Made by a program: the position numbers and the translations under genes. Source: Xylaria sp. FL1777 (Eukaryota; Ascomycota; Sordariomycetes; Xylariales; Xylariaceae). Taken from it: a stretch of 64,000 nt of DNA. This document shows, piece by piece, positions 18,150-60,116 of the stretch. The first letter of the stretch is position 1; each line of letters starts with the position of its first letter. Under the pieces are notes generated by a model, which worked only from the letters and a program-made list of their open reading frames with translations, did not search any database and was not told the DNA's origin. Location: contig MU400552.1 in assembly GCA_022578965.1 (NCBI GenBank), positions 279,119 through 343,118 on the forward strand, in the 5' to 3' direction.

Positions 18150-18788
18150 ATGGATAATACGTCTGACGTCATGAACTTGTTGACTGCCCCAGAGCATATA
18201 ACTCATTCACAGATTCCATTTCCCTCCGATTCGTACCGCCGATGGGACCCAGACAAATTCTCCATTTCGATCAAAGAAGCCGTTCGTGATGGGCTAAATC
18301 CAAATATTCTGTGGACTGAGGATGAGCTAGTTGCACCCCGGGTTCGTGGAGGCTGCATTATACCGTGGGCGGAGGATAAGGATAAAGCTTGGCTACATTG
18401 GAATACGCCTTTCCACCGCGCGCTGTGGATCAAAGACTTCGAGTCGGCCATGTTCCTGCTCCAAATCGGAGCGGACATCAATATTTATAATGAGTTTGGG
18501 CAGACGGCTCTTCACGAAGCTGTCTGGAGGGGCGACCGAGACTCGGCGACTTTCTTGCTACAACATGGTGCGGACATGTCCAAGCCAAGTATTGAGAGAA
18601 GGATACAGTGGGAAGGACGGCACATACATGGCCATGGTGATAATCTACCTCTACACCTCGCTATTTCAAACGCCGATATGACGATGGTAGAGCTACTTCT
18701 TGATCACGGAACCGACTTGCATTTTCTTTCTGCGGGGTGCTGGACTTTTCTCGATTTAGCTTTCCTGGCACGCATCGACGGGCGATAG
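18150..18788 (+). CDS. ankyrin-repeat N-terminal half of an ankyrin-HET gene
   Basis: 212 codons from ATG 18150. Ankyrin units are visible: WNTPFHRALWIKDFESAMFL followed by LQIGADINIY, then GQTALHEAVWRGDRDSATFL followed by LQHGADM, then DNLPLHLAISNADMTMVELL followed by LDHGTDL, and the start of a fourth unit, TFLDLAFLARID. The frame ends at TAG in the middle of this fourth unit. The missing second helix (RRAIGLFSSRGIRLSG) is found immediately downstream in the frame of the next entry, -1 relative to this one. The two halves therefore almost certainly formed one ankyrin-HET gene. No intron of plausible size explains the shift. Confidence 0.75.
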   Translation: MDNTSDVMNLLTAPEHITHSQIPFPSDSYRRWDPDKFSISIKEAVRDGLNPNILWTEDELVAPRVRGGCIIPWAEDKDKAWLHWNTPFHRALWIKDFESAMFLLQIGADINIYNEFGQTALHEAVWRGDRDSATFLLQHGADMSKPSIERRIQWEGRHIHGHGDNLPLHLAISNADMTMVELLLDHGTDLHFLSAGCWTFLDLAFLARIDGR

Positions 18789-21858: not shown

Positions 21859-22125
21859 ATGACTATGACTCGTTCGGATACTTACTGTCCACTTAATGTG
21901 TGCAATGACTTCATTCAGACGATGCATGGTAAAGAGGGAGGGCCATATTCGTTTGTCACATTGAAGCAGTTCATGGAAGCAGTAGAAGCGGGATGCCCAA
22001 CCTGTCGTCTGTTCCTGGACGCGCTCCTTTGCGTTCACCCAGGAGGCAAGAGTGAACTTTTCAATCATATGAAGCGCCACCAGTTACGTGAAACGCATCC
22101 GCATAAGGCCGGTTATCGTCCCTGA
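21859..22125 (+). pseudogene. HET-like N-terminal fragment
   Basis: 88 codons with YCPLNVC followed by VTLKQFMEAVEAGCPTCRLF and LDAL. This Cys-x(n)-F...AGCxxCxLxLDAL pattern is the typical pre-domain region of HET proteins and matches the GGCPLCSLAADAL region of the ankyrin-HET protein at 19.2 kb. The frame then runs into the antisense of the truncated HET gene and stops. It is probably a rearranged fragment. A fortuitous antisense frame is the alternative. Confidence 0.35.
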
Positions 22126-22870
22126 GAAACGCGGCGACATCGTCCCAATCAAGTGTCTCAGTTCCTACGATCAGAAGTACACGGCCCGCACAGGAAATCT
22201 CCTGCATTACCCATATACGAGACCACAGCGGGGCCCAACGAAAAAGGGACTTCAATGCTGTCTCGTCGTCGTCCGATAGTATCCAGTGCTGAGCTTCATC
22301 TTGGTCGCCACGCGCTAGCGCTCGGGGATTTCTCCTCCTCCACCGGCGCTGCATATCATCAAGAGTTTCGGCGTCATGGTTATATATCTTCCGAAAAATC
22401 CTCAAACCGGGTTTTAAACGTTCCAGGTGCTCATTGGCGACTCTATTGCCATCCTCCCCAGAAGGCGTTCGACAACTCCCAGGGTTTGGTCCTAACCACG
22501 CCAGATCCTGTGTGCATCGTGAGTATATATTCTTCATGAGCGTGACTTGGTGGTTGCGCTCTGCGATGTCTGCCTGGTTTATGCAGAGCGCATCAACCCA
22601 AAGGATACGGTCTGCTGAGGCATGCCTAAGGTATCGTAGTGCACTCTCAAGATTTTCTGTTATATTGAATGGTTTCTCATCGACCAAAATATGCTGCGTG
22701 AACTTGAGAGGCCCCCATACGTATGACAGCGCCTCATACTCAGGTATGTCATTGAGGTAAGCATGGAAAAGCGAGCATTGGAGTACGTCATCAAAGGACT
22801 TCGAAGGATGTAGACGAAGCAGGCGGATTACTTCTCGTTCTAGGTTAAGAGGCCGGTAGATTGTAGACAT
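22061..22870 (-). CDS. truncated HET-domain protein
   Basis: 269 residues from ATG 22870. The HET domain is well preserved: YEALSYVWG, ILWVDALCINQADIAERNHQ, the LMKNIYSRCTQDLAWLGPNP block and WSRIWVMQEISCAG. The protein stops shortly after DDVAAFLRDDNRPYADAF. Family members usually continue for several hundred residues, and no continuation is seen on this strand. Instead an oppositely oriented HET-like fragment begins at the break. This is either a truncated pseudogene or a short HET-only protein. Short HET-only forms exist in the family, so function cannot be excluded. Confidence 0.7.
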   Translation of the reverse strand: MSTIYRPLNLEREVIRLLRLHPSKSFDDVLQCSLFHAYLNDIPEYEALSYVWGPLKFTQHILVDEKPFNITENLESALRYLRHASADRILWVDALCINQADIAERNHQVTLMKNIYSRCTQDLAWLGPNPGSCRTPSGEDGNRVANEHLERLKPGLRIFRKIYNHDAETLDDMQRRWRRRNPRALARGDQDEAQHWILSDDDETALKSLFRWAPLWSRIWVMQEISCAGRVLLIVGTETLDWDDVAAFLRDDNRPYADAFHVTGGASYD

Positions 22871-23022
22871 TATACGCACACAATATTTCTGCTTGTGAAC
22901 TTGTATTCACCTGATGGTTGGAAAGGAATGAATTGCTTGTTCCAGTTTACAGGCAGCTAGTATTGTGGCTGTGCCAGTCATCTCCCCGACTTGGTATTGT
23001 GGCTTGTTTTCTTGCATGTTTT

Positions 23023-34876: not shown

Positions 34877-37796
34877 ATGCGGAATGCTCGCTTTTCATTG
34901 GCTGCGAGGCTCCTGAGCAACAGCAAACATTCGGTTTCCGGTGACATTACCAAAGCTGAAAATTTACCTTGGGCCTTGATCGGCGATGCAAAAGACTGTT
35001 TATTCAATGAGCTCGAGAAGTTGTATTGGATTGGAATAAAACAAGAGCTTGAATCGGTTTTGTGCACGCTGAGGGCTTGGCAAGCACCTCAATACCAAAA
35101 CATTAGCCTTGAAGATGAATCCGACAGTTTTGTGCATGGTTTTGATACCTTTATCGACCAAGTTAGTGAGGCAAGCCGTGCCTTCGCTGACGAAGTGGCG
35201 AAATGGAAGAACCGGGATGGTGAATTTGCAACAGAGAGTTATCTCGAAGCACTCCAGCGGAGCGCGCAAGATATAGCGTCAGATCAGAAGAGCACACAAA
35301 TCAAGACTGCGATTCGGCAAGCCATAGAGAGTCGACCTAACGAAGAAATTTCCCGACGTCGCACTAGACTACTTCTTCAGGCAGTTGGCTTTCTGGATAT
35401 TGAGAAGCTGGTTGAGCACCGGCCGCCGTTGGACGAGTTATCATTCTGGAAGAGACCTGCAATTCCGCAACTCAGACTCGACACCGTTAGTAAAAGTGGC
35501 ATACCTATACTAGCGCCTTTGCGATGCTCTTCTTGTTCAAATATAATTCGAGGCAGTATGTATCGCCGAACTACCCTCAATGAAGACCCAAAAGAAAGGG
35601 AAGCGGAAGATGTTTGCGAAGACTGCTATCGCGAGAAGTTCCTCGGGACCCTCGGATTTGCGAAGACCTATAAACACAGCATTCTCCGCGAAGCTATTAG
35701 TCCTCGAATCAGTCGGCAAATATGTTTCTGCGACGAAGTGCCGCATCGCGATGCCTCAGGAAAACCTCTTAGTTTGTTTCCCGTCGATAAAGCTACTAAA
35801 CATCTCAGAGCTCCGGGACCAGGATTAGTCGAGTGTGGCTTACTAAAACTCCCAGAGATTGTAGCCGAGGCGAAATACGACGGCATGCAAACTCTCGCCT
35901 CAAAGAAGAAGCCAAAGCATAACAAGCTTCTAGCGGATGAGAAGAGAGAAGATAAAGAACGTGAGGTATTAAAGTCAAAGAAAAGCCAGAAGCAGCAGCA
36001 ACGAAAAATAGTCACACAGAAAAGCCAGAATGCCCCGGAGAGGACTACGGAGACCGGGACAGCCGTGGCAGTAGCAGAAGCCGAAGCTGACGAAGACGTC
36101 CCGTTCTTCTTGAAGCGCTATACTGAAAATTATCCATTTGGTAATGTCCATATGGCACTACGACTTGGGCCCTTAGTTTTGGAGAATGGTGTTGCTCAGT
36201 GAGGCCACTTATACTTTGGGAAATGAACACAACTAATAAGTAAATAGTACGAAACGTGGTGCTCTGATTAGTCTACGAGATAGCCTCGTGCTTCATTCAC
36301 CACCCTTCAACGAGGTAACTAAAAGCCTGGCTTTAAGTGAAGGCAACACTCGACAGTTGTGGTGGCAAAATCGACCTCCAGGACGCCCAAAGCGCTTTAA
36401 GTCTATTATGAAGCAAGTTATTGGTTCACCCTTTACTGGGCTCGAACCAGGAGATGCTCCTCTCGAGAACTGTATCATCGACAGTCTTATATCCGCTAGC
36501 CATATTGGTTTCGACGACCCTGGACTCAGTTACCGGGACCGCCAGAAATGGATAGACAAGCTAATAGCACCGATCATAGAGGACCTAAAGGCCTTGATTG
36601 GAGTCCGGGTGTCTATTTACATAGAGAGCATTGCTTCACGATTGCTAGATCCGCAAACGAGACTAACATGGAGCCCAACTAGCAACAACTGCCAGAATTT
36701 TTGCGATTCTACCATAGACCTTGATACTTTCGGATCTCTTATCGCCGAAAAGCACGAGCAGACCCAATCTCCTTTATACCTTATGAGCTTTGTTTGCCGC
36801 CCTGCAGGCTATAATAAGCCCAAAATAAAGTCTAAATTTGATGTTCCACGCGGTCTTACAGAAGAGTACCTCCTCCGGTTTCGGTACGGCCGCCACGACG
36901 ATGCTGATATCGTCGATACACTGCAAGAATATTGGTACGATTGGGCTGCCTTCGGGAGAAATCTGTACCGATACCAAGACCTTTTCCCCTGGGATTGCAC
37001 GGAGGCTTTTGGTCGATATCCTGTGACTTGTGGCGACTGCAACTTGGCGAAACACGTATGGGCATTCCCGTTTGATTCATGGTCGATCTTAGCTTTACAC
37101 TTGACTAGGGACCGATCCAATTATCCACCTAGTGGCGTGAACAGGGCGGCCATCATATCCGATGAGGATTGGGCGAGGAATAGGTTATTAGTTCTTACGG
37201 CACAAGAAAAACTCACAACGGCCGCCACTGAAATGGCAAAGAATGCTTTGTTTCGGAAAAGTACTGCCTGGCTACACCAACAACCTCAGCCAGCTCTAGA
37301 CAGACTCAAGCTAGGTGGCATCCATCGCGCACAACCGTTCAGCCACTACTACGACCAGGGCAAGTATCACCATTACTTCACCGCCTCCTGGGCACACTTA
37401 AAGCTTGAGGACCAGATCACGGAATATGAATTACTTCGAGACGGCAGAGTGAAGCTTCCAGACGTGGAATACGCGGCACAGCTATACTCAGGTCATCAGG
37501 TTGAACTTGACTGGCCAATGCTCGATAGCGGCATCGGCGACGGATTTGCGCCCTTTTCAGAGGCGACTGTCGCTGATTCTGGGCTCGGTATGGCGGCTCC
37601 AGCGGCTATGGATGCTGCTGATGCGAATTGCGGATCTGGCTGTGGAACCAGTGGGTGTTCGGCAGGGGCAGACGGCTCCGGCGGCGATGGTGGAGGAGAC
37701 GGAGGTGGAGGAGATGGCGGAGGAGATGGTGGAGGGGGAGATGGCGGAGGGGGGGATGGTGGAGGCTGTGGTGGTTGTGGAGGTTGCGGAGGTTAA
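34877..37796 (+). CDS. large fungal protein with Cys4-type motif and glycine/cysteine-rich tail
   Basis: Exons 34877-36198 and 36248-37796, one 49-base intron, 956 residues. The N-terminal 430 residues are mostly helical and charged, with a CSSCSNIIRG...CEDCYREKF cysteine pattern (possible zinc site) at about residues 218-252 and a Lys/Gln-rich coiled segment near 345-385. The central part (QLWWQNRPPGRPKRFKSIMK, then PLYLMSFVCRPAGYNKPK and RFRYGRHDDADI) is conserved-looking but unknown to me. The last 40 or so residues are almost pure Gly/Asp then Gly/Cys (GGDGGGDGGGG...CGGCGGCGG). This is the kind of tail usually carried by GRDP/DUF1399 proteins, one of which is its divergent neighbour. A functional link between the two is an inference from gene order and the tail. 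Confidence 0.75.
37680..37793 (+). repeat. GGN/GAY codon repeat encoding the Gly-rich tail
   Basis: Tandem GGA/GGC/GGT codons interrupted by GAT/GAC, then TGT/TGC. It is imperfect at the base level but regular at the protein level (GGGGD units, then CGG units). It is likely prone to length variation. Confidence 0.8.
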
Positions 37797-44994: not shown

Positions 44995-44999
44995 GTATC
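44995..44999. repeat. target-site duplication, left copy
   Basis: GTATC directly before the left LTR. The identical five bases follow the right LTR. Confidence 0.85.
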
Positions 45000-45208
45000 T
45001 GTTAGGTCACATGACCTAGCACCTAGCCCATAGCCCTACAATATGTGTACTATAGCCCACCATTTCGTAGGCCAGACCTTCGGCTAGCCACTTAGCTAGT
45101 CTTATCACACTTTCAGGTTTTAACCATTATAAAATATATAGTATATTAAGCTTTATTTAATGCTAGTACGCTTTTTGCTTTTTGTTAATGCTTTTGCTAT
45201 TTATAATA
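45000..45208 (+). repeat. left (5') LTR, 209 bp
   Basis: Aligns without gaps to 59,903-60,111. By hand count they differ at 38 positions, all transitions. In the first 100 positions the right copy carries the A/T state in 24 of 25 differences; in positions 131-209 the left copy does so in 8 of 10. The outer ends are therefore less mutated than the inner ends. Confidence 0.92.
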
Positions 45209-45226
45209 TAGTAGTTAGCAATTGTT
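45209..45226 (+). other. candidate primer-binding site
   Basis: The sequence starting directly after the LTR is TAGTAGTTAGCAATTG. If the first TAG is a mutated TGG, this is where the complement of a tRNA CCA end is expected. The mutations prevent naming the tRNA. Confidence 0.35.
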
Positions 45227-47281
45227 TTAGCGTTTTTGCTTGTTAAAACAGTTTAATATAACTTTAATTAGCTGTTTTTAAATCTAAAGATTTTTTTTGC
45301 TAAGTTTTAAAATTACTAATTAAAAACTTTTTAACTGTAGTTTTATTATTTATTAAAACTTAGATTTTATTTAAAATTAGCTAAATATAGCTTAAAAATA
45401 ACATTAATTTAAACTAAAAAACAGTAATATTACTACTAAATTAACAAGCTATAATTAATTAAAGGATTTTTTAACTTTTAGCAAAGTTACTTTAATGCTT
45501 GTTTTGCTATTTATAGCTTTTATTATTTAAAACTTTTAAAAGTAATACTTAAGCTTTTTAAAGTATAATTATATTTATTACTATTGCTAATAAAACTAAA
45601 AAAGTTTTTAAATTATTTTTAAAACTTTAAAGAACAATTTATATTTAAAGCTTAAGTTAAATTTTAATAAGCTTAATTAATTGCTTTATTTTTTTTTTTT
45701 GCTTTTTTACTTTAACTTATAGTTTTTATTATTAATAATTAAATGCTTGCTAATAATAAGCAAAGATCTTTTAATAATAATAATAAATTGCTGCAATTTT
45801 TTTTATTAGTTATTTATTTAATAAAGCAAGTAATAATTAACTTATTTAATTAAAAATTAAAAATTATTGCTAACGTATTTATTTTTTATTTAGCAACTAT
45901 AATAAAGCTTATAATAAACTAAAAAAACTATACTAACTTATTTACTAGTTTAGTTTATAGTACTAAAGCTTTTTTTATTGCTATAGTTTTTTTTGTTTTG
46001 CTTATAATATAACTAGTTATGCTTTTAAAACTTGCTATAGCTATTTTATAATTCTTGCGTTCTTTAATTAGCAACTTTATTTATTTGCTATTTATTAGCT
46101 TAATTAAACTTGCTAAGTTTATTATAGCTATGCTTGCTATAGTTATTTTTTTAGTGTTTATTTTATTACTAAAACTATTGCTATTTTTTTACTTTAGCGC
46201 TAAATAAGTTTAATAAAAAAAACTTGCTAAAAAATTTGCTATATTACTTATTATATTGTTGTTTTTTGTTTTTTGTACATTTATTATATTAAGCGGAAAA
46301 ATAGCATTTTTTAATAATAAAAAGTTTTTGCAGCTTAATTTTATTTAAAATATAAGCAGTAATATTTGCTAAGTTTTATTTATAAGCTATATGTTTAATT
46401 ATTTTATAAACCTATTTTAATATTTATTATAATATAAATTATTGCTTTTAAAACCTTTTTAACAATTTTAATTATAATATTAATATTAATATTTATAAAT
46501 AAATAAACTATAAAATATAGCTATTATATGCAAAATAATAAATAATATTTCTTTAAAATTATTTAAATATTTTAAACCTTTTGTTATTATAAAAGTTTAG
46601 TAGTAAGCTTACATAGTATTAAACTAATTAAATAAAATTAAATAAAAATTTTAGCTATTTTAAAGTTAAGCTTGTATTTTAGTAGTAATAAAAACCTTAG
46701 AAAAATTTTAGTAATTATTAATTTAGTTTATTGCTTTAGTTATAGCTTTATTTTTGCTATTATAATTTTTTAAGCATATTAGCTTTATAAATAATTTGCT
46801 TTTATAAATTTTAGTTTTATTACTTTTATTTTTATTTTTATTTGCTTTGCTATGTTTAGCAAATAATTTGTTTTAGTTAATAATATTAAGTAACTAAAAA
46901 CTACTAAATATATAAACTTATAATAGCTTTTAAAATGTTAAAGCTTTATAAAATTTATTTATATTACTTAAATAATAAAGTAAATATATATATTAAAACA
47001 TTTACGTTAACTTAAATATAATAAGTTATTTTAACGCATATTTTAATTTTATTGCTTAGCTTTTTATTTATGCTATTTTATTTTTAAGTAATTTTACTAA
47101 AAACTTAAAGCTACTACTAAGTTTTTTGCAAAACTAATATAATATAATTTATAATAATAATAGTTTTAGCAAAATTTTGCTTAAGCTAAAGCTATTTAAG
47201 TACTATAATAGTATATTAGTAATGCAATATATTAGCAAACTTAACTTATTAAGTTTTTATTACAAAAATGCTGCAGTTTTA
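45227..47281 (+). other. 5' part of the retrotransposon (leader and N-terminal Gag)
   Basis: Extremely AT-rich. It probably holds the untranslated leader and the start of gag. I could not place the start codon. No second feature is discernible. Confidence 0.4.
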
Positions 47282-50200
47282 AAAAAATTTAAAGTAAACA
47301 TACTATTTAACTTTATATTAATAAGTGCTATTTAGTTTAAAAGTTTAAAAAATATAACTAAATAAACTATTATTTATAACTTTAAAAAAGCTAAACGTTT
47401 GCTTTAATAACGTTTTTAAAAAAATAAACTTAAAGTTATAAAGCTTGCTAACTAAAAAAAGTATAATTTTGCTAAAAAATTATTTAAGTTTATAAAAGAA
47501 TATATTAATATAAAAGTTTATTATTATTATAAAATAAGCAATATTAATAAAGATTATATTACTTATTATATTTATAATAATTTAAATAAAAACTTTAAAT
47601 TATTTGTTAAATTATAACAAATAAGTAATATTATTTAAAACTTATATAAATAAGTTAGCATTAATAAGTTTTTAGTAATAAAGCAATAATATAAAGTAAA
47701 TAAAGCACGCTAAATATAAAATAAACGTTTTATTAAGCTTAAAGCTTTTATTAAAAAAAATAAATCTTTTTGTAACTATTGCAGTAGTAATAATATTTAG
47801 CTTTACTATAACTAAAATTATGCTTTTAATAGTTTTTTTCTGCTTTTTAACGCTATTATAGTGCTTTTAGACTTTTTTAAAAGCATAATTAACGTTTTTA
47901 AAAACTTTAAAAGCAATAAAAAAAAAATACTAAAAATACTGTTAATTTAACAAATAATAAAAGTAACTTATGCTATAATTAAAATAACTATAATTATTAA
48001 AACAATTAGAATTATTAAAACAATAATAATTATTAATTTTTTAAGGTTGTTTGTACTTTTATAATAAATAGCTATATTATATAGCAAAACGTAAACACTA
48101 AAAACCTTTATGTACTAAAGCAGGTTTTTAAATAAATGCATAATTTTTAGCTTATATATAACTTTAAATCTTTAATAAAAAAACTTAACAAAGTTAATAT
48201 GCTTAATAAACTTGCTAAGCTTTTTAAAAAAACAAAGCTAAAAAAAAACTAAAGCAAACGTCCAAAAAAAACGTATTATTAGCTAACTTATTAATATTTT
48301 TTAAAGTAGCTAATAATAGCAAAATATTAGTTAACATTAAGTATACTAGCTTTTTTAGCTTATTTAATAATATTTTTAACGCTTTATTAAACTTACTATT
48401 TAATTTTTTAACTACTATTAATTATACCTTAAAATTTTTTAAAGCTAATAATAATAAAGTACTAATTAGCTTTTATTTAAATATTTTTTTTTTTTATTTA
48501 TTAATAACTATTTTATTATTTTGCTTTAAAAAGAAACTTTAAATATTTTATATAATTTTATATGTTAACTTATTTTTAATAAAGCGTTAAAAGATTTTAA
48601 AGTTTTTAGCGCTACTATAAATATTAAGTTGCTTAATTATATCTGCAAAAAAAAAAAAACTGCGTATTTTTATATAGCTAAAAGCTAAATATACAAATAA
48701 AAAAGCTATACTTATTTTAAAGCTATTATATATAGCTTAAGTTAATTAATTAAAGCATATATTAATACTTGTTTTTTATTTAGTTTTATATTTACTAAAT
48801 ATTTTATAAAGTATTACTTTAGTTATATTATTATTAATATAAAGCTTTTTAGTTTTAAAAATATAAATAAAAGCTTTTATATTAAATAATGCGTTAATTT
48901 TAATATAACGCTACTTAATACAAACAAAAAGCTATAAATAACATAATAATGCTTTTATTTAATAAATAAATTTAATTATAATATATTACTAAATATATTT
49001 TTTTTGTTTAAAAACTGTTTTTATATTTGCTAAAGTAACAAAACATAAAATAATAAACTATATATAAAAAAGTTAAACAAACAAATTAAACTTTTTAGCA
49101 AATTATAAAACAAACTAAAGCTATACTAAAAATTAAGCAAATTACTGCTAATTTAATTTAAAATCAACATTAATATTATATTTAGTACTAGTATAGCTAT
49201 ATTTATAAAGCATTTTAATTTCTTAATTATAGCAAATAGTTATTTTATAGTTAATAAACTATATATTAATGCTAGCTTTAATACGCTTAGTTTTTTAATA
49301 GCTAATATTATAAATAAACAAAACAAATGTTATTATTTCGCAAATTTTAGCGAACTTTTAATATTTATTTATAAAAACAACATAATTAGCTATATTAAAA
49401 CTATGCAAATTTATAACTTAGTAATATTATACTTTATTTTTGCTTAATAAAACGCTAAAAAAGCTTATACTGTTTTGCTTTTTAAGATTATTAATATAAC
49501 TAAAGCTAATAATATTAATAATAATTAAAATAATTAATATAAATATAGCTATTTTTTTAATTTTTTTAATTTTTTCTTTAAATTATTGCTTAAGGAATTT
49601 AAGCTAAACAAATTAAAAATAAATATATTTTTTAACTAAAAACCGAAAATTATTTAGCAAATTAAAAATATTATTAAAAAATATGCTTGTTTGTTTTGCT
49701 TAAAATTAAATAAGTTTAATAATAGTATTTAAATGCTAATTAACTTTAAAAACAGAAAAACATATAATAATTTAAGCTAACGCTTATATTAATAATTTTG
49801 TTATAATATTAAAGCAATAAACAATATTTTAAAGCTTTTAATTAAAGCTAAAGTTATTAAGCTTATTTTATTTAGTTAACTTTGCTTTATAGTATTTTTA
49901 GCTTTTATTATATAGCAAAAAAATAAACTTTGCGTTATTATTAATTTGTGTAAAGTTAATATAAAGCTTGTTAATAATATATACTTGTTACTACAATAAA
50001 ACAAAATTCTTAAAGCTATATATAAATTTATAGTATTTATAATAATTAATATTATAAAAAGCTATTTTTAGCAAAAAATTCCTACTAAAAATAAGCATAA
50101 AACAGCTTTTGTTATATATTATTAAAAGTATAAACAGCTAATTATAACTACTATAAAACTTAAAACATTTTTAGGTTTTTTTTAATACTAAATAAAATAG

Positions 50201-53098
50201 CTTTTTTGCAAATATTTTTAGCAATTTGTGCTAATTTATATTAATAACATTATTGTTTATTTTTGCAACATTAATAATTATTTTAGCTATTTTAATATTA
50301 TTTTTAGCATACTTGCTGCTTTTAAATGCATTATATTTTTAAAGAAATGCTACTTTATATAATATAGCTTTAATGCATTTAGTTAGCATGTTTTTAAGCT
50401 TAAGCTATTTACTACAAAAAAAAAATATAAAGTAATTTAATAACTTAAAATGCTTAAAACTTTAAATAACTTTAAAAAAGGACTTAGTTTTATAAATTTT
50501 TTTTGCTGTTATATATATTAATTTGCTAAAATTGCTTAATTATTAAATAAACTTAAAACAATAAGTTTTAAAAATTGTTTAAAAAAAGCTAATTTAAAAA
50601 AAGCAAAATAAGCTTAAAGCTATGCATTACTTTTACTTATTTTACTTTTAAAGCTTAATAAAGTTACTAATAAAATATTTATTAAAGAATTTGTTATATT
50701 TTATAATATAAAAGCACGTTAAGATTTTATATAAACTAAAGCATAAAAAGCTTAAAAAACGCTAAAAAAACATATATATAAAGTTATTAATTTAGCATTT
50801 TTTAACTATAATAAGCTATTTATACTTTAAGTAAACTTAAGTAAGCTATATAATATTAGTGTAGCATTATACTAAATATAAAATAATAGCAATAAACTAA
50901 AACTTATATTGTTTTTTTTTTAATTATTTAGCTTTATAAAATAAAGATTTAGCATTTGTAAAATTAAAACATGCAAATTTATTTAAACTTTTAAAAAACT
51001 AACTTAATATTTTAACTATAGTTAAATTTATGTATATATAAATTATAACGCTATTATATAAGCTTTTTGCTTAATTTTATAAAAGCTAAAAAGTTTAAAT
51101 TAACTTATATTATAAAAGCTATTTTTAGCAAAATATGTAAACTGTTTGTTTATTTATTATACTTTTAAAAAAGCACTTATTAATATAAATGCTTTGTTTT
51201 AATTATTTTATAAAAACAACAAAAAAAAAAAATCTATACTTTTTTTAGTAATTGTTTTACTAATAATTATTTAAGCTAAAGCAAAAATAAATTAATTTAT
51301 AGCTATATTAACTTAAGCTAATTTTGTAGCTTTAGCTAATAATTAATTTACGCAAGCTAACTTAAAAGTTTTAAAAGTTGCAAATAATACATTAAAAGCT
51401 TTAGCAATTATAACTACTGCAATAAAAACGCCTGCACTATTTATTAACTTAATAAATAATATAATTAATTTGCTTTTTTATATATTAGCATTTAAAAAGT
51501 TTTTTTTATTACTTTAAGAACTATTAAATATACTTAAAGCGTAAATTTGCATTTTAAAAGTAAATAGCATTATTATAACTACAATTTATATTTTAAACGA
51601 ATTTTAGGATAAAATTGCAAGCAATTTGCTTAAAAACCGAACTTTTTACATAGTATATAAACGTTTTTAAAAACAATATAAAATAACCAAAAATAATAAT
51701 AAAAAACTTTTTATAATGCTTTATGCCTTTAAATATAATTTTAGTAGTTGCTTTATATACTTTACTTAAACAACAGAAAATTGCATTATTATTTTAGTAG
51801 CTATTTATATTAAAGTAATATAGTTAGCTTATAATAATAAAGCATATATAAAAATTAAACGTACATATAACTATTTGCAAACTATTATATATTGTTTTAA
51901 CTTAAAAAAACATATTATTAAATATATAAGCAGCTATTTTAACTATAAAATAGCTAAAAAAGCTATTTATAAGCTATATAGTAATTTTTAACTAATTTTT
52001 ATACTAGTTTTTTTTTTGTTTATTTTATGTTTTAATTTTATTATTAGTTTACTAAAATTTAAATATAGCTACAATATAATCTTTATAGTTATATATAAAA
52101 CGTTTAAAGCTATTAAGTATATTTTCAGTTATAATAATTAAAACGTTATAAATTAAGCTTAAGCTTATATTTAATAAGTTTACTTAAATTAAGAACTACT
52201 TAATAGGTTTATATTTAATGCTAACTTTAAACTTATAAGTGCATTATAAATAGCTTTATATAAAGTAAAAAAAGTTGCAATATAATTTATAGTAGCACAT
52301 TATTAAGTAGCTAATAAACAAATAAAACAAACTATTTAAACATTTTAAACTTATATAATTATATTTATAAAAGCTTAGCTTAACTTTTTTAATTAAAAAA
52401 ATTATATAAGTTATATTGCTTATTGTTTTAATACTTTTATATTATTAATAATAAGCAAAATGCCTTTTAAGCTTTTGTATAGCTATAAAGCTAAAACTTT
52501 TCTTTTTGTTAACTTTAAAATTAGAAATAATTTTGCAAAAAAACAACAATAGCTTAAATAAAAAGCATTTAATGCTATTTATTTAGCTTAAGCATAAATA
52601 AAGATCTATTATAATACATAACACATAAAGCTTTTAATAATACATAAAAAAGATTTTATATATATTAAGCTTTTTAAGCTTAGCTTGCTTAATTATTATT
52701 TGTAAAACTAAACAAAGTTAAGTTTTTGCAAAATTAGCTTTTTTAAAGTAAAAAAATACATTAGTTCTTTTTATTTCCGAATTAAACTTTTTAAATAGCT
52801 TTAATAGCATAACAAAATATCTATTAAATACTTAAAGCTAACTAAACTAAACAAGTTTAATTGCTTTAAACTAAAGCTTAAAAGTTTTAACAATAAAAAT
52901 AAACAAAAATAAATTATAAATAAAATATAAAATTACGCTTATACTAAGCTATTTTTGTTTTTTTTTTATAACAAAATTTAATTATGCTATAAAATTAAGT
53001 AGTATAGCTACAATATTAAAACATAAAAACTAGCAAAGCAAATTAAACAAAATGTCCTTAAGCTAATAAAAGCATATTATAAGCACACTAAAACATAG
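47282..53098 (+). pseudogene. mutated gag-pol of a Ty3/gypsy chromovirus
   Basis: One frame (codons in register with 50237) stays readable for about 5.8 kb. It shows a Cys-x2-Cys knuckle at 47,771 (TGT AAC TAT TGC), as at the end of Gag. Reverse transcriptase runs from about 49,900, with the catalytic box reading YINNIIVY at 50,237-50,260 where YIDD is the family motif; the two Asp codons became Asn. A residue pattern matching K-C-x-F follows. Then come the integrase Cys-x2-Cys end and KKARHKPYG-like block near 51,930, the DGQTER-like box near 52,310, and a chromodomain at about 52,920-53,070. The knuckle, RT, integrase and chromodomain share one register, so gag and pol formed one polyprotein and no net indel has occurred. 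Stops are mostly TAA/TAG, as expected from C-to-T and G-to-A changes. Confidence 0.85.
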
Positions 53099-53769
53099 AG
53101 TTTTATACTATACTATTTAACTGCAAAAATACTATTGTTTATTACTTTAAAAATGCATTATAATAATTAAGTGCACTTTTTTAATATTACTTAAGTTTTT
53201 TGCGTTTTAAGTAAAACATTAAAAAGTTTAGCATGCTTTTATAGTTATTATTAATTAGCTAAAAAGCTAAAGTAAAAAGTTTACATAAGCATTTTAACTA
53301 TATAAACATATAAGTTTATTTATAAAGTTTTAATAAATATTTTTAATTTTTTTAGCGTTTTAATAAAGTTATAAATATATAAGTACTTAAGTATATTAAT
53401 TAATTAGTATATACTTTTTTTAGCATGTTTTTTTTGCAAGCAAAGCATATTTACTTATTACTAAGTATTTTGCATGCTTTTTTTTTTGCAATTTTTTAGC
53501 AGCTTTAACTTTACATATAATTAGTTTTTAAATTATATATAATTATACTACTTTTGCTTTGTATACTTTTAGTTTTTAAACTGTTTTTTTGCTTTGTATT
53601 TATAACTTTTTTTGCTTTATAACTATATATTTTTTACTTTATAAAACACTTTTGTTTTACGTATATTAAACTGCATTTTTGTACTTAAGATTTAGTTTTA
53701 TATTTATTTTTTAATTATTTAACATTTTTTTATACTATAATTTTTTACTTTTATTAAAAAACAATTATA
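53099..53769 (+). other. AT-rich spacer between gag-pol and the second frame
   Basis: No motif, terminal repeat or LTR edge is recognised. This is where the boundary of a nested insertion would be expected if the second frame belonged to another element, and none is visible by eye. Confidence 0.35.
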
Positions 53770-56700
53770 ATGCTTTATTTATTTAAAATTAAAGACGTTT
53801 TTAAAGCTAAAACTACTTAAATTTAAATTAAATATAATACTAGCTATTATATTTAGCTTAGCAAAGTACTTAATAATACTACAAAAAATTATATATTTTT
53901 TATTATTATTAATAGCAAATTAGTTATTATTTTTAATAGTTTTTGCAAGTACTTTATAAGTTTTAAGCTTTTTGTTTACGTTATTTTAAGTATTATTTAA
54001 AATTTTAACTGTTTTAATACTATATTTGTTTTTTATAAAGCAATTGCTAATAACTTAATAATATTTAATACTAATTTGTTTAATAATACTGTTTTAAGTA
54101 AAATTTACGCATTTTTTTAAAAGTTAAAACTTATTAACATTAAGCATATATAACTTTTTTTGTAAAAATTTAATATTAATAATAATAAAAATTGCAAAAG
54201 CGCTATTAATTAAGCTTTTGCTTATTAGTAAACTAGCTTTGCTTTTTTAAATAACTTAAAGCGTAAATATATTTATAACAGATTTTATAAAAATTACACT
54301 AGCTTTTTTATTAGTAAAAACTATAAAGTTTAACTGTTTATTATTAATAATATAATTAGTTAAATATATTATACTATTGTTTATTTAGCTTATTTATGCA
54401 TTAAATGTTCTAGTATTACTTATAATTATTTTAACTGCAAATATTAAATTAATATTAATAATTATTACATTTATAAATATTTTAAACATTGTAAAGAAAA
54501 TTGCAAATTACTACGTATACTATTTTATAATATTTGCTAAGCTTATAATGCTTACTTTACTTTGCTTTGTTTAGCTTATATTATTTTTTCTTTTTTTATT
54601 ACTTTAAAAAAAAAGAAAAAAAACTATAAATTACCTTTAAAAGTTTACTTTTATATTAATAATGTTGCTTAACTTTTAAAATTTAATAACAAAACTTAAA
54701 AGCTAATTTAAGCAGTTTTTTAAATTAATAAGTATAGCAAATATAAAAGCGCTTATATTATACAAATAATAGCTGCTATTATAAATACATTTATGCAATA
54801 AAAACGCTTAAGTAATAAAAAGCTTAAGTAAAAAGAACTATTTTTAATTGTACTATATATACTTAAATATGTTTTAAGCGTTAGTATTATAAAAAGTTAA
54901 AAATATTAAACTATTATTAAGCTTAATAATACGCGCTTTAATATTTTTTAATTGCTTATTAAGCATGCTTATTAGCTAAAAAACCGTAGTAAATATAGAG
55001 TTTTTGTATTAATTATAATAAAATATAATATAATTATTTAAAATTTAAAAGTTATTAAAATTCTTATAAAATCTGTTTGTAATTAAGCTTTTTTTGTTAG
55101 CTTTATAAACATTAAGTTTAAGCTATATTATTTAGCTATAAAAATTAAGTTTATACTTAATGTTTTTATATATATTAATGCTATTTATTATATAATATTT
55201 TTTAACTACGTTAAGTTTTTTATTAATATGTTTAGCGTAGCATTTATTAAAATTTTTAAAGGCATTAAAAAAGTAATAATTAACGCAAAAAAACTATAAT
55301 TAATGCAAATTGTGCTTTTTGCTTATAACTGCAAAACTTAAATTGCTGCATTAATTTTTATAAACTGCTATTAATTTTGCAATTTAAATTATTATGCTTT
55401 ACTTAAGCGTTATGCTTAAAAAAGAGTTTTTAGCGCTATTAAAAAGCTTATTAATTACTTATAAGCTAATTTTATTTAGTAAAAAGCTTTTAAAGTTTTT
55501 TTAAACATAGTTAAAAAATTAGTTTAATTGTTATATATAGTAATTTATAAATATAATTATTAAAACAAAATTGCAAAATATATTAGCTGCTTTTTTATAT
55601 TAAAAGTAGTAATGCTAATAATTAGTTAAAACGTTTGCAATTTTATTACTGCATAAATAGTGTTTTTTAAAAAACTTTATAAGCTACTTTTTATTTTATG
55701 CTTTAGTAACAAATTATAACTAAAATTGCATAACATTTTATATATAGTTTTTTAACTTTTAAATGTAAGCATAAATAAAAATAAAGCTATTTAAATAATT
55801 ATAAAAAAAATTATTAAAGCAGTTTATAAAGCTTGCAATATTAGCTAAAGCAATAAAGCTTGCTTAATTATATATATTTTTAGTTATTTTAACAAAATAT
55901 TTATTGTAATACTAAATAAAATAATTAAAGCAAAGCAAACTATTTTTATAAACAAATAAGCATTAAAATGTTTTTTAAAGTATAGCAATAATAATAAAAT
56001 TAAGTTATAAAAAAACTACAAACAACGTTTTAAAACTTAAGTTATTATTTTATAAAAAAAAAACTAGTTTAAGCTTTTTATAAAAAACATTAAAAAGCTT
56101 TTATTATATATTATGCTTTGTATGCAGCTAAACAAAAACTAGTATTAAGCATTAAACTATGTTTTATATTTTAAAGCATTACATTATTTGCATTAAAAGT
56201 TATATTATAGCAAACGTAAGCTATTTTGCTTTAAAATTCCTAATGCTAGCTTTATTAAAAAAGTTAATACTGCTAGATTTTTTTATTGCTTAAATATATA
56301 AATAAGCAATCTTAACATAAAACTTTCTTTTTTTTAAACAGTTTAAAAGAAAACTTGCAAAAATAAATTAAAAGCTATAATTATTATAACTATAGTTTTT
56401 AAAAAAAACTTTGCTAAGCTTGATTTTTTTTAATAAACAAATAACTTTAATTCTAAATACTATAAATATATAGATTTTATAGTTTTTTTTGCTATTTGTT
56501 ATTTTTTTAACTAAATTATTAGTAAAACATTTTAGCAATTAGCAAACTTTATAGCACTTAAAGCTAAAATTAAGTTTAAAAAGTTTAAACTTAATAAAAC
56601 TTTTATTATAATAGCTTTAATAATTAATTTAACTATAAATAAAACAAAACAAATTAATTTTTATAATTTTATATTATTTTTAATTAATAAACTAAAAACA

Positions 56701-59700
56701 AAAAAAATTTTATTAGTAAGCATTATAAAGCAAAAATTTATTAAGCTATATAATAAATATTTTAGCTTAAATAAAAAACAATATAACTTTATTAATTTTA
56801 ATTTGCTTAAAGTTTTTTATAGCATAAAGTTTTTTATTAGCTGCTTTAATGCAAGCAAAACTGCAGTTATAACATTTTTTACTAAACTTTTTATATAAAG
56901 TTTAATTAACTTAAATAACTTTTATGCTACTAAACTTACTTTTAAACTAATTATAGCAAAGCTAAATATGCTTAAGTTTATTTTTAATAACTTTGTTAAG
57001 CTTACTGCTAATAAAAAGCCAAAAAAAAGCAAAAAAAAGCAAAAACAGAATTTTTTTGCTAAAGTTTGCTTTAATAATATTTTACTTTAAGTTAACAAAA
57101 AGTATAAAACTACGTTAAAAAACGTTATTTCTAAAAAAAATAATAAAAAACAAAAAAAATTTTCTAAAAAAAAACAGTTAAAAAATAATAAATAAAAAAC
57201 TATAAGTAATAAACAAAAAAAAAATAATTAAAGAAACTTAAGTTAAATAAATAACAATTAAACAAAATTAAATTAAATAAAAAAAAATAGTTAAAAAAAA
57301 TTAAATAATTTAAATTAAAGAACTTTAAATATTTAGCAGCTAATAATAAACTAAAACAATAAACCGTTTAAATTGCAACTTAATTTTAACTTTTTTTTAA
57401 AGTTTTAAAAAAACAAAGCTTATATTTAACTTTAAATGCTTATTATTAGTTAATAAAATATGCAGCTTAATAATTTTGCTAAAAAGCTTCCTTAATATAT
57501 TAGCTTTTGCAAAACTTATATTATTTATGCATTTATAATTATTATAGCTACTAAACGTATTACTGCAAATAATAAAAAACTAACAATTATTAAAAATTTT
57601 ACTAATTTATTGCTTATTAAGTTATTTATAACTTTTTTTTTAAACTAAGCATATATTTTGCTTAATAATAACGCTATAATTTAAAAATTACTAAAATTAG
57701 TTAAGTTAGCTATGCAAAAGTATTTAAGTTAAAATGCAAGCTTTAAACTTGCTTTTTGCATTATATTTAATTTTTGCTTTTAAAAATTAAACCTAAAGCA
57801 TTAGCGCAAAAAAAGTACTAAAGTTTAACATAAACTTTTTAAAAAAATAATTAAAATAGTTTATTAGTTAGCTAATTTTATTATATATATATTTTATATT
57901 ATAAAAAGCTTTGCTAACATTTTTAACGTTATAATTCTTTAAATTAATAAAAATTGCTACATAATTAAACTAAGCGCTTTTATTTTTTTAACTAAATATT
58001 TGTTCGTTATAATTAAACTGTTCTTAAATAATAATAAATAAATATAGCCTTTTTTTTTTTTTAAGAATATTTATAAAACTAAAATTAACGCCTTGTTATT
58101 TTTTAATTTTTTTATGTTATAAATATAAACATTACTATTAAATATACGTATTAAATATACTTAAGCTATATTTATATATTATTTATATATTAATTACTGC
58201 AATAAAAGTAGCATATTTAACTTTATATTTAAAACTTTTTATAACAATAAAATAATAAAACTTAAATAACCTTAAATTTATAAAGCTTTATGTATTAGCA
58301 AAAAATTTCTTAAGTTTATTTTTTATAACAGTTACTTTAGTTTTTTGCTAATAATTATTATTAAAAGCAATAATAAAAATATATTTAAAAATAGCATAAT
58401 TAACTATATTAATGCTAATTATATTATACATTTAGTTTTTATAATTTAACGATTTAACTTATGCTATATAAACAATAAACGTTTTTTTATAAGCGTTATT
58501 ACTTTATATAACGCTTAAGCAAATTTGTTAAAATTTTGCTACAATAAATATAATTTTACTAAAATTTACTTTAAGAAAATTAACATTTAAACTATTACTA
58601 TAGCGCAAAACTATAAATATAATTTTATTATTGCTAACTTTACTTGTACTTATAGCTTTAGCTTTATTAAAAATAGCAATTTTAATGTAGTTATTTTTAT
58701 TTATGCTAAATATATTATTATTTACTTTTGTAATAATAAAGCATAGTTAAACATAAAAACTTTATATTAACTTAAAAACTTTAATTAATATTATATTACT
58801 AAAAAAGCTATACTTATTTTTAAAAAAAATTCTTAAAAATAACTATATAGATTTTATTACGTAAACTATAAACATAATTAATACTACTATAATACTTTGC
58901 GCTGTTTTATTTATAGCAGTAATTACTATATTTATAACTGCAATAATAAGCTATAAAAGCTTAAATCTAAAGTTATATTAAAAAATCCGCATAGTTTTAT
59001 TACATAATATTTAAAATTTATATAAAATAACTAAGCTATTATTGCTTACGCTTTAAAAGCTTGCTATATAATTTAAAAAATAAAAAATTAAATTAAACTA
59101 ATAGTTAAAAAAGCAAGCAATAAATAAACTGCTATAAACACTAATTAACTTAATAAAGTTTAGCGTTATATTTAGCAAAACTTAAATAAATAACAAAAAA
59201 ACCTTAAGTGTTATAAAGCTAAAGCTAAAAAAGTAAAAATTAACTTTAACTTAATTAAGCTATTAACTTTTAAGTTTTTTTTTGTTAAACTATTAGCTTT
59301 AACTTTTTTATTAAAGTATACTATAAGCAACTTAACAATAAAAAACAGTTTTAATTATATTATAAATAATATAGCTATTTATGTTTATTATTGTTTTTAT
59401 AATATATAACGCATGTTTGCTATTTTGCTAGTTAATAAATAAATTATAACTGCTTACTTTAAATTTTAGCTAGTTGTTTTTTTTAATGCTAAACTTTTTT
59501 TAGTTTATTATTTAACACCTAAAAAAAAAAAATATAATAATTATAGCTTTTATAACTTTATTATAAAAGCTATGCTAAAAACTATGCTATAATATTTAAA
59601 GCAAAACATTTTAGTTTAAAATAATTTAAAAAAACTTAGTATAAAGATTTATGCTTAGCTTAATAATTTAACTAAAGAAATTCTAGTTTTTAATAGCAAG

Positions 59701-59841
59701 TTAACCAAAAAAAAAGCTATTAAAAAGATTTAAAAAGTTAAGATTTTAATTGCTAAAAACAATAAATCTAACAAAAAAAAGAAACTTAAGTACAAAAATA
59801 ATAAAAATATTATAAAGCAAATTAAAGTTAAAAAGTCTTAA
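53770..59841 (+). pseudogene. second giant frame (about 2,024 codons) of the retrotransposon, unidentified
   Basis: From ATG 53,770 to tandem TAA at 59,839 a single register can be followed on the same strand as pol. I checked the register at 55,381, 56,881, 57,121, 57,361, 58,861 and 59,821. It is interrupted by TAA/TAG codons of the kind made from CAA, CAG or TGG, but never needs an indel. Features: a Cys/His-containing region around 54,400-54,560 (CIKCSS, FNCKY, KHCKENCK), a long helical-looking middle, a basic KKPKKSKKKQKQN stretch near 57,030 (possible nuclear signal), a low-complexity stop-dense linker at 57,180-57,360 (probably formerly Gln/Glu-rich), then about 820 further codons with a Lys-rich end. 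It lies between the chromodomain and the polypurine tract, the position of env in retroviruses, but it shows no clear signal peptide or fusion/TM architecture. It may be a captured gene, a nested transposon product or a novel accessory protein. Confidence 0.6.
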
Positions 59842-59892
59842 TAATAATATAATAATAATAAAAGCATTGCAAAAACATAATTCTTTTTTTTT

Positions 59893-59901
59893 AAAGGGAG
59901 G
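59893..59901 (+). other. polypurine tract
   Basis: AAAGGGAGG, one base before the right LTR. It is a rare G-rich run within almost pure A+T, exactly where plus-strand priming occurs in LTR retroelements. Confidence 0.8.
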
Positions 59902-59902
59902 T

Positions 59903-60111
59903 TATTAAGTTATATAACTTAGCACTTAGCTTATAGCTTTATAATATATATATTATAGCTTACTACTTTATAAGCCAGACTTTCGGCTAGCTATTTAGCT
60001 AGTCTTATCACACTTTTAAGTTTTAACTATTATAAAATACATAATGTATTAAGCCTTATTTAATGCTAGTACACTTTTTGCCTCTTGTTAGTGCTTTTGC
60101 TATCCATAATA
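59903..60111 (+). repeat. right (3') LTR, 209 bp
   Basis: Same length as the left LTR. It begins TATTAAG (TGTTAGG in the left copy) and ends CCATAATA (TTATAATA in the left copy). The inner, left side is the more mutated one. Confidence 0.92.
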
Positions 60112-60116
60112 GTATC
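60112..60116. repeat. target-site duplication, right copy
   Basis: GTATC immediately after the right LTR, matching 44,995-44,999. Confidence 0.85.

What the first reader, a model, noticed from the sequence alone, without database searches (positions are those of the whole stretch)
53770..59841. Indel-free 2,024-codon second ORF in the env position of a chromovirus
Between the chromodomain end of pol and the polypurine tract, a single register on the same strand can be followed for about 6.07 kb. Stops in it are of the type produced from CAA, CAG and TGG by C-to-T or G-to-A change. Ordinary Ty3/gypsy chromoviruses have nothing here. The predicted product has an N-terminal Cys/His cluster, a basic patch near 57,030 and no visible envelope features. 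I could not match it to a family. It could be a captured host gene, a nested transposon whose ends are lost, or a new accessory protein of giant fungal retroelements.
Basis: partly seen in the sequence, partly recalled or inferred. Interest (0 to 1): 0.9.

Follow-up and report, generated by a model that had tools for sequence, protein, structure and literature searches.

The report
Fungal retrotransposon with helicase-like second gene
In a Xylaria fungus, old mutated copies of a 15-kb virus-like jumping element carry, where an envelope gene would sit, the remains of a 2,000-codon gene, part of which looks like a relative of the cell's RNA-quality-control helicase UPF1.

Summary
Window 53770-59841 is one reading register inside a complete LTR element (45000-60111; 209-bp LTRs; 5-bp target duplication GTATC). 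It has 116 stops; the other five frames have 144-362. Its start is found at 13 other places. All 11 copies that run unbroken through the end of pol carry it, and 7 of 8 testable insertions have their own 5-bp duplication. Among pol copies examined none lacks the block with a clean junction, so a recent nested insertion is unlikely. The assembly encodes a protein 100% identical to one from Xylaria sp. FL1777.

Part of the frame can be identified despite mutation. Pfam AAA_12 (UPF1-type superfamily-1 helicase) matches 10 of 10 copies scanned, and none of ten wrong-frame pieces. A mutation-aware alignment gives host UPF1 57-84 in 10 copies (null means 31-36). Motifs IV-VI carry the signal (64.6; 0 of 200 shuffles reach it); II-III are suggestive (5 of 200); motif I is by eye only. 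Two Cys/His clusters lie before and after.

Best reading: an accessory gene of a chromovirus coding for a UPF1-like SF1 helicase that acts on the element's own RNA (function inferred). It is not env. SF1 helicases in insect retrotransposons are the closest published precedent I found. Most of the N-terminal 1,000 residues remain unidentified.

The parts
44995..44999 (.). 5-bp target-site duplication GTATC, left
   Evidence: read directly; same 5 bp right of the 3' LTR
45000..45208 (+). 5' LTR, 209 bp, starts TG
   Evidence: 82% match to the 3' LTR over 207 nt; start fixed by the TSD
49730..53107 (+). pol from RT to chromodomain, RIP-mutated, register of 45212
   Evidence: mutation-aware alignment to an open 1,789-aa Gypsy polyprotein on contig 234: 297.9 against null 42 (5 shuffles) in this frame, 41.2 and 40.1 in the other two forward frames; that polyprotein has RVT_1, RT_RNaseH, RT_RNaseH_2, Integrase_H2C2, SH3_Tf2-1 and Chromo
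52934..53086 (+). chromodomain of pol, approximate, by transfer
   Evidence: Chromo of L076 mapped through the alignment
53108..53769 (+). T-rich spacer between pol and ORF2
   Evidence: stops in all three + frames; pol match ends at 53107
53770..59841 (+). ORF2, 2,024 codons, in the env position, RIP-broken
54397..54570 (+). N-terminal Cys/His cluster, ORF2 residues about 210-267
   Evidence: columns where copies show only C/Y or H/Y
56836..56862 (+). candidate Walker A / motif I, residues 1023-1031 (by eye only)
   Evidence: residues shown by the copies; not supported by profile scans
57007..57309 (+). Lys-rich stretch, residues 1080-1180
   Evidence: 35 Lys-bearing columns, 25 of them Lys only
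57943..58272 (+). suggestive match to UPF1 motifs II-III, residues 1392-1501
   Evidence: UPF1 430-572 scores 45.1 here, its best place; 5 of 200 shuffles reach it; collinear with the next part
58174..58650 (+). Pfam AAA_12 match, residues 1469-1627
   Evidence: E 5.2e-5 here; 10 of 10 copies scanned, best 1.2e-6
58360..58773 (+). UPF1-like SF1 helicase core, motifs IV-VI, residues 1531-1668
   Evidence: UPF1 573-720 scores 64.6, 0 of 200 shuffles; core profile 74.9 at 1533-1667
58846..58941 (+). second Cys/His cluster just after the helicase, residues 1693-1724
59893..59901 (+). polypurine tract AAAGGGAGG
   Evidence: read directly
59903..60111 (+). 3' LTR, 209 bp
60112..60116 (.). target-site duplication GTATC, right

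Best explanation
The 6-kb block is the second gene of a 15.1-kb Ty3/gypsy chromovirus that spread in the Xylaria genome and was then broken by RIP. The gene coded for a protein of about 2,000 residues: a Cys/His cluster near the N-terminus, a Lys-rich stretch, a superfamily-1 helicase core of the UPF1 type, and a second Cys/His cluster. (Shown: part of the element, a coding register, helicase motifs IV-VI. Suggestive: motifs II-III. By eye only: motif I. Inferred from spacing: that the clusters bind zinc.) Most likely it is an RNA-binding helicase that acts on the element's own 15-kb RNA. When gag-pol is translated, some 7 kb of RNA including ORF2 lies downstream of the stop codon, a layout that nonsense-mediated decay attacks (recalled). 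A UPF1-like protein of the element could occupy that RNA in place of host UPF1, or help to export, package or unwind it. (The mechanism is inference.) Confidence: gene of the element coding for an SF1 helicase 0.8 (lowered from 0.85 after one search showed that motifs II-III are only suggestive); acts on the element's own RNA 0.35.
For: Element: LTRs, TSD, PPT; pol from RT to chromodomain in one frame. Block inherited with the element: 14 places; 11 of 11 copies unbroken over 50700-53760 also carry it; TSDs match in 7 of 8 insertions tested (by eye). Coding register: stop count below all 300 simulations.

Helicase: AAA_12 was the only Pfam family at E <= 1 in the 10 copies scanned over 57400-58899, and was found in 10 of 10. 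Ten wrong-frame pieces gave nothing but one LIM hit at E 0.25. The element's own pol, a sure case, scores no better: RT_RNaseH_2 at 9.9e-5. The mutation-aware SF1 core profile scores 74.9 in this frame (150 shuffles: mean 38.6, maximum 56.0) and 34.7-42.8 in the other five frames. Host UPF1 scores 77.2 (150 shuffles: mean 39.1, maximum 57.7), and 57-84 against null means of 31-36 in the 10 copies testable, out of 14. Its part with motifs IV-VI scores 64.6 (200 shuffles, maximum 44.4). 66 decoys (50 reversed helicases, a reversed pol, 15 window ORFs) peak at 46.9. hhalign puts motifs IV-VI in the same register, though weakly (E 0.089).

Cys/His clusters: 8 C-x2-C pairs against 2.07 expected (4 in the first cluster, 2 at 1247-1253, 2 in the second); the densest 60-residue stretch is reached by 2 of 2,000 shuffles.

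Mechanism: yeast Upf1 is among host factors whose loss lowers Ty1 cDNA (PMC3522557, passages); HIV-1 recruits UPF1 to its genomic RNA (PMC4693258, abstract).
Against: No intact relative was found: protein searches with residues 1380-1660 and 740-1140 gave nothing, though exact-word searches with mutated letters are weak. Motif I was not detected by profile, so activity cannot be claimed. UPF1's part with motifs II-III is reached by 5 of 200 shuffles, SEN1's by 15 of 200, SEN1's motifs IV-VI by 2 of 200. Motif blocks scanned singly: VI ranked first of all positions in six frames, V second, IV fourth; blocks I, II and III did not pick the aligned places. Earlier, cruder mutation-aware scorings gave no significant match (in one search the right place came up at a null score); only the version with context rates and a corrected background did. 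Shuffles of other tests reached 50-63 (frame +2: 63.2; 57.9; 57.5), and one Cys/His-rich unrelated ORF scored 50.5, so scores near 50-60 are not safe alone; the lowest copy (57) and SEN1 (43-61) fall there. The shuffle maximum for C-x2-C pairs was also 8. A PDB profile search gave no helicase. The structure model was worthless (pLDDT 42.8). The AAA_12 hit of the window copy is below Pfam's curated cut-off (23.3 against 27 bits). Nothing here tests expression or function. The copies are close relatives, so they are not independent tests of the helicase, and long-term selection on ORF2 could not be tested.
Confidence: 0.67

Rival explanations
1. A host UPF1-type gene was captured by the element as passenger cargo and did nothing for it.
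For: Among the host AAA_12 loci compared the core is nearest to UPF1; retroelements capture ORFs downstream of pol (PMC6431247, passages).
Against: UPF1's own zinc and 1B domains were not found (weak on mutated sequence). ORF2 has 2,024 codons against a 1,133-codon open frame at host UPF1. All 11 unbroken copies kept it.
Confidence: 0.2
2. The block is a separate transposon nested in the chromovirus, with lost ends.
For: Helicases are typical of Helitrons (recalled). One copy (contig 234) breaks at 53096 and another (contig 185) begins at 53091.
Against: 11 of 11 unbroken copies carry it; no inverted repeats of 60 nt or more in 40000-64000 (shorter ones not sought); the break at 53.09 kb is 0.67 kb upstream of ORF2 and concerns single copies.
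Confidence: 0.05
3. ORF2 is an envelope-like gene, as in retroviruses and some plant Gypsy elements.
For: Position between pol and PPT.
Against: Helicase core within it; no envelope family hit.
Confidence: 0.02
4. The helicase likeness is an artefact of AT-rich, RIP-mutated sequence; ORF2 codes for something else.
For: Cruder scorings were negative; an unrelated ORF reached 50.5 and single shuffles up to 63.2.
Against: Ten wrong-frame pieces had no AAA_12 hit, five other frames scored at null, 66 decoys at most 46.9; 0 of 150, 150 and 200 shuffles reach the core profile, UPF1 and UPF1 motifs IV-VI; Pfam and the mutation-aware method agree on the place.
Confidence: 0.1
5. The helicase serves DNA synthesis or integration (unwinding template or cDNA) rather than RNA protection.
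For: The template is unusually long (15 kb); UPF1-like and SEN1-like helicases act on RNA and DNA (recalled).
Against: No direct evidence either way; DNA2 scored near null.
Confidence: 0.2

Closest known systems
[quoted passage not shown] passages read)
   Same: A retrotransposon that codes for an SF1 RNA helicase; a UPF1-like layout with a zinc domain is discussed there for TRAS.
   Different: Those helicases are traced to positive-strand RNA viruses and are fused to element proteins. Here the helicase is in a separate 2,000-codon ORF in the env position of a fungal chromovirus and matches AAA_12 and UPF1; no Viral_helicase1 hit was seen.
Orchid Gypsy elements with an AlkB RNA demethylase ORF (PMC9289625; abstract and passages)
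   Same: Giant Gypsy element with an extra ORF coding for an RNA-acting enzyme.
   Different: Other enzyme, plant host, 25 kb, shown active in vitro.
Fungal Gypsy elements with an additional ORF of unknown function, or with dUTPase (PMC2864245; section 5 read)
   Same: Fungal survey including chromoviruses; elements to more than 13 kb; extra coding capacity.
   Different: The extra ORF has no assigned function there; the word helicase does not occur in the main text.
Host UPF1/NAM7 (locus L023; named by PDB matches)
   Same: Helicase motifs IV-VI, and suggestively II-III, align collinearly.
   Different: UPF1_Zn_bind and UPF1_1B domains of L023 not detected in ORF2; ORF2 is longer, with a Lys-rich stretch and about 360 residues between candidate motif I and motif II.
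Helitron and Pif1-type transposon helicases (recalled)
   Same: Transposon-encoded SF1 helicases.
   Different: Pfam matched AAA_12, not a PIF1 family; the element is an LTR element with a 5-bp TSD.

Membership tests
Ty3/gypsy chromovirus (Metaviridae) | LTRs flanked by a short target duplication | tested here: met
   209-bp LTRs; TSD in 7 of 8 insertions tested, contig 22 fails
Ty3/gypsy chromovirus (Metaviridae) | pol order RT, RNase H, integrase, then chromodomain | tested here: met
   collinear match to an open chromodomain-bearing pol; directly in the mutated frame only RT_RNaseH_2 was seen, so the chromodomain is by transfer
Ty3/gypsy chromovirus (Metaviridae) | gag | tested here: inconclusive
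   no match of the upstream part to the first 760 residues of the open polyprotein; no Pfam hit in 46502-49501
UPF1-like SF1 helicase (Pfam AAA_11 plus AAA_12) | motifs IV, V, VI (AAA_12) | tested here: met
   10 of 10 copies scanned, 23.3 bits against a cut-off of 27 in the window copy; 0 of 200 shuffles reach UPF1 motifs IV-VI
UPF1-like SF1 helicase (Pfam AAA_11 plus AAA_12) | motifs II and III | tested here: inconclusive
   collinear in the UPF1 and SEN1 alignments, but 5 and 15 of 200 shuffles reach those parts; not picked as single blocks
UPF1-like SF1 helicase (Pfam AAA_11 plus AAA_12) | motif I (Walker A) and AAA_11 | tested here: inconclusive
   no AAA_11 hit; profile scans negative; candidate by eye at residues 1023-1031
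UPF1 orthologue | UPF1_Zn_bind and UPF1_1B domains | tested here: not met
   present in host UPF1; not found in ORF2 by Pfam or mutation-aware alignment; sensitivity on mutated sequence is limited
Retroviral or Gypsy envelope | envelope family match | tested here: not met
   no such Pfam hit over the ORF; fold not testable
SF1 helicase | ATPase and unwinding activity | not testable with these tools
   broken gene; no intact copy found

The most novel reading that the evidence does not exclude
A fungal LTR retroelement carried its own large, zinc-cluster-bearing counterpart of UPF1 in the envelope position and used it to shield or manage its bicistronic 15-kb RNA against the host's RNA surveillance: a retroelement-encoded UPF1 mimic.
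Probability: 0.25. Interest if true: 0.85.

Novelty: new variant of a known kind. Interest (0 to 1): 0.6.

Why it matters
It adds a UPF1-type RNA helicase to the short list of enzymes taken up by LTR retrotransposons, in fungi, where extra ORFs of Gypsy elements had no named function in the survey that I read. If kept by selection, it gives a testable case of a retroelement countering or exploiting RNA surveillance. It also shows that coding content of heavily RIP-mutated elements can be identified without rebuilding them, by scoring known proteins through a model of the mutation.

Tried and rejected
Direct Pfam scans of ORF2 outside the helicase: only COX6C (E 3.6) and vRNAP_dom (E 6.3). NCBIfam on the helicase part: nothing. 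PDB sequence profiles of three pieces: two chains named C3HR3_4r and C3HR3_9r_shift4 at E 3.4 and 6.4, else nothing. Database searches with two stretches of ORF2: nothing. AlphaFold2 of residues 1011-1710: pLDDT 42.8, no fold search made. Mutation-aware scoring with one flat rate, or with a poor background: no signal; I replaced it by context-dependent rates and tested that on pol (297.9 against 42), on decoys and on more shuffles. The rates (0.8 for CpA and TpG, 0.4-0.55 otherwise) were set by me after seeing the copies' context counts, not fitted. UPF1 zinc domain, 1B domain and SEN1 N-terminus: not found. Of 40 forward Hrr1-family proteins scored (of 120 fetched), 17 had their best place in residues 1380-1740, against 11 of 66 decoys; the best scored 68.8. 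An unrelated Cys/His-rich ORF of contig 234 scored 50.5 at the Cys cluster: taken as composition. Copies without the block: stretches of contigs 87, 234, 334 and 397 were read. Contig 87 has an insertion in pol and then ends; 334 has an insertion and ends; 397 has an internal deletion from about 51.3 to 58.2 kb and keeps ORF2 pieces; 234 breaks at 53096. Contigs 583 and 416 were not examined. Nine papers were opened; two of them (PMC3538342, PMC4522978; passages) were not used. Novelty rests on ten searches, of which 55 and 96 were on side questions, in an open-licence library only.

Full report
WHAT IS THERE. The window is contig 47 of a 58.7-Mb assembly in 588 contigs. A host protein of that assembly is 100% identical to one named for Xylaria sp. 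FL1777, so I take that as the host. Within the window, 45000-60111 is a complete LTR element: 209-bp LTRs (82% alike over 207 nt), a polypurine tract at 59893-59901, and the 5-bp duplication GTATC on both sides. Its GC is mostly 15-18% against 34-55% in the flanks.

THE ELEMENT IS A CHROMOVIRUS. An open 1,789-codon Gypsy polyprotein lies on contig 234 with RVT_1, RNase H, Integrase_H2C2, SH3_Tf2-1 and Chromo domains. Scored through a model of the mutation, it matches the window at 49730-53107 in one frame only: 297.9 against a null of 42 (5 shuffles); the other two forward frames stay at null. The match is collinear to within 17 residues of its C-terminus. So pol ends near 53.1 kb, after a chromodomain (52934-53086, by transfer). 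gag was not identified.

THE BLOCK BELONGS TO THE ELEMENT. The ORF2 start is found at 14 places with 87-100% identity, and 57800-59100 at 14 places over nearly its whole length, plus fragments. All 11 copies that match 50700-53760 without a break are in the list. Of 8 insertions whose two flanks could be compared, 7 have a matching 5-bp duplication, each different (GTATC, TATTA, CAAGC, GTAGC, AATAG, TTAAC, CTAAC); contig 22 does not (read by eye). These are independent insertions of one unit. Nine further places have pol but not unbroken. Contigs 480, 390, 185 and 119 carry ORF2. Contig 87 has 13.5 kb inserted in pol, with a 4-bp overlap at the break, and then ends; contig 334 has an insertion and ends; contig 397 has an internal deletion from about 51.3 to 58.2 kb and keeps pieces of ORF2; contig 583 was not examined. 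Contig 234 breaks at 53096 and contig 185 starts at 53091, as the two sides of one insertion would; this was not proved. None of those examined shows pol joined cleanly to the 3' end without the block.

THE BLOCK IS A CODING REGISTER. Frame 53770-59841 has 116 stops; the other five frames have 144 to 362. In 300 simulations the best of six frames averaged 212 and never went under 183. ATG is kept at 53770 in 13 of 14 copies. Of 1,591 variable sites among 14 copies, 1,541 are pure C/T or A/G: RIP. Transversions between 12 near-complete copies average 0.19% (0.016-0.55%) against 9.0% transitions, so the copies are close relatives, mutated after they spread. Stop columns are mixed with sense in 54 of 144 cases, 44 of them showing Gln.

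WHAT IT CODES FOR. Pfam AAA_12, the C-terminal half of UPF1-type SF1 helicases, matches residues 1469-1627 at E 5.2e-5 in the window copy (23.3 bits, cut-off 27) and is found in 10 of 10 copies scanned, best 1.2e-6. Ten pieces from the five wrong frames gave only one LIM hit at E 0.25. The sure pol domain of the same element scored only 9.9e-5, so this is the strength that a true domain can reach in such sequence. Then I aligned host proteins to the mutated codons, each residue scored by the chance that it gave the observed codon through C-to-T and G-to-A change. A profile of 11 SF1 helicase cores scores 74.9 in the ORF2 frame (150 shuffles: mean 38.6, maximum 56.0) and 34.7-42.8 in the other five frames, though one of 15 shuffles of frame +2 reached 63.2. 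Host UPF1 (named by PDB matches) scores 77.2 (150 shuffles, maximum 57.7) and aligns residues 1392-1668. Cut in two, its part with motifs IV-VI scores 64.6 (0 of 200 shuffles reach it) and its part with motifs II-III 45.1 (5 of 200) at the collinear place. Over single copies UPF1 scores 57-84 in the 10 that were in frame and complete (of 14), SEN1 43-61, Hrr1 42-50, DNA2 near null. 66 decoys reach at most 46.9. hhalign puts motifs IV-VI in the same register at a weak E of 0.089.

WHAT IS NOT CLEAR. Motif I was not found by profile. By eye, residues 1023-1031 fit a Walker A in which the glycine places show Ser/Asn in the copies, as a RIP-mutated Gly would; this is inference. Single motif blocks discriminate poorly: VI ranks first among all positions of six frames, V second, IV fourth; I, II and III did not pick the aligned places. 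The N-terminal 1,000 residues match no family, apart from a Cys/His cluster at about 210-267. A second cluster lies at 1693-1724. In all there are 8 C-x2-C pairs (4 in the first cluster, 2 at 1247-1253, 2 in the second) where 2.07 are expected; 8 was also the maximum of 2,000 shuffles. Neither UPF1's zinc domain nor its 1B domain was detected. Searches of the large protein database with two stretches gave no relative; mutated words make that weak evidence of absence.

HOW IT MAY WORK. Known: Ty1 retrotransposition and HIV-1 RNA export are linked to UPF1 (PMC3522557, passages; PMC4693258, abstract), and SF1 helicases in insect retrotransposons are discussed as RNA-silencing suppressors or UPF1-like quality controllers (PMC5563155, PMC6338049, passages). 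From the anatomy: ORF2 lies about 0.66 kb after pol, in another frame, so it needs its own, a reinitiated or a spliced message, and the gag-pol stop codon would be followed by some 7 kb of RNA. A UPF1-like protein made by the element could bind this RNA and keep host surveillance or silencing off it, or aid export and packaging. I give this 0.35. That the ORF is a helicase gene of the element I give 0.8, lowered from 0.85 when one search showed motifs II-III to be only suggestive.

NOVELTY. Helicase-bearing retrotransposons are known in insects, extra ORFs in fungal Gypsy elements too (PMC2864245, section 5), and an RNA-modifying enzyme in orchid Gypsy elements (PMC9289625, abstract and passages). 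I found no UPF1-type helicase in a fungal LTR element in ten searches of an open-licence library, two of them on side questions; most subscription papers are missing there. I call it a new variant of a known kind.

Noticed in passing
L076 (contig 234: 29400-39300), 84-5420: An open Gypsy polyprotein of 1,778 codons with chromodomain, GC about 50%, sits in this heavily RIP-mutated genome next to AT-rich sequence.
   Followed up: partly
contig 234 near 13327 and contig 185 near 3535: Two copies break at window 53096 and 53091 respectively, a 6-nt overlap, as if they were the two sides of one nested insertion.
   Followed up: partly
contig 87: 184744-198214: A 13.5-kb insertion inside a copy of this element's pol, with a 4-bp overlap at the break; a related AT-rich stretch (92% over 1.3 kb) occurs on contig 334.
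   Followed up: no
contig 22: 334646-349761: Both LTRs at the usual distance, but the 5-bp flanks do not match, so perhaps a recombinant copy.
   Followed up: no
window 45000-45120: By eye, the first 120 bp or so of the 5' LTR kept near-normal GC while the rest of the element was heavily mutated; other copies look alike.
   Followed up: no
window 36288-37796: ORF ending in a long Gly/Cys/Asp repeat tail.
   Followed up: no
window 15125-17425, 18737-21175, 22061-22879: Three ORFs that look by eye like fungal heterokaryon-incompatibility (HET) type proteins (recalled); family not tested.
   Followed up: no
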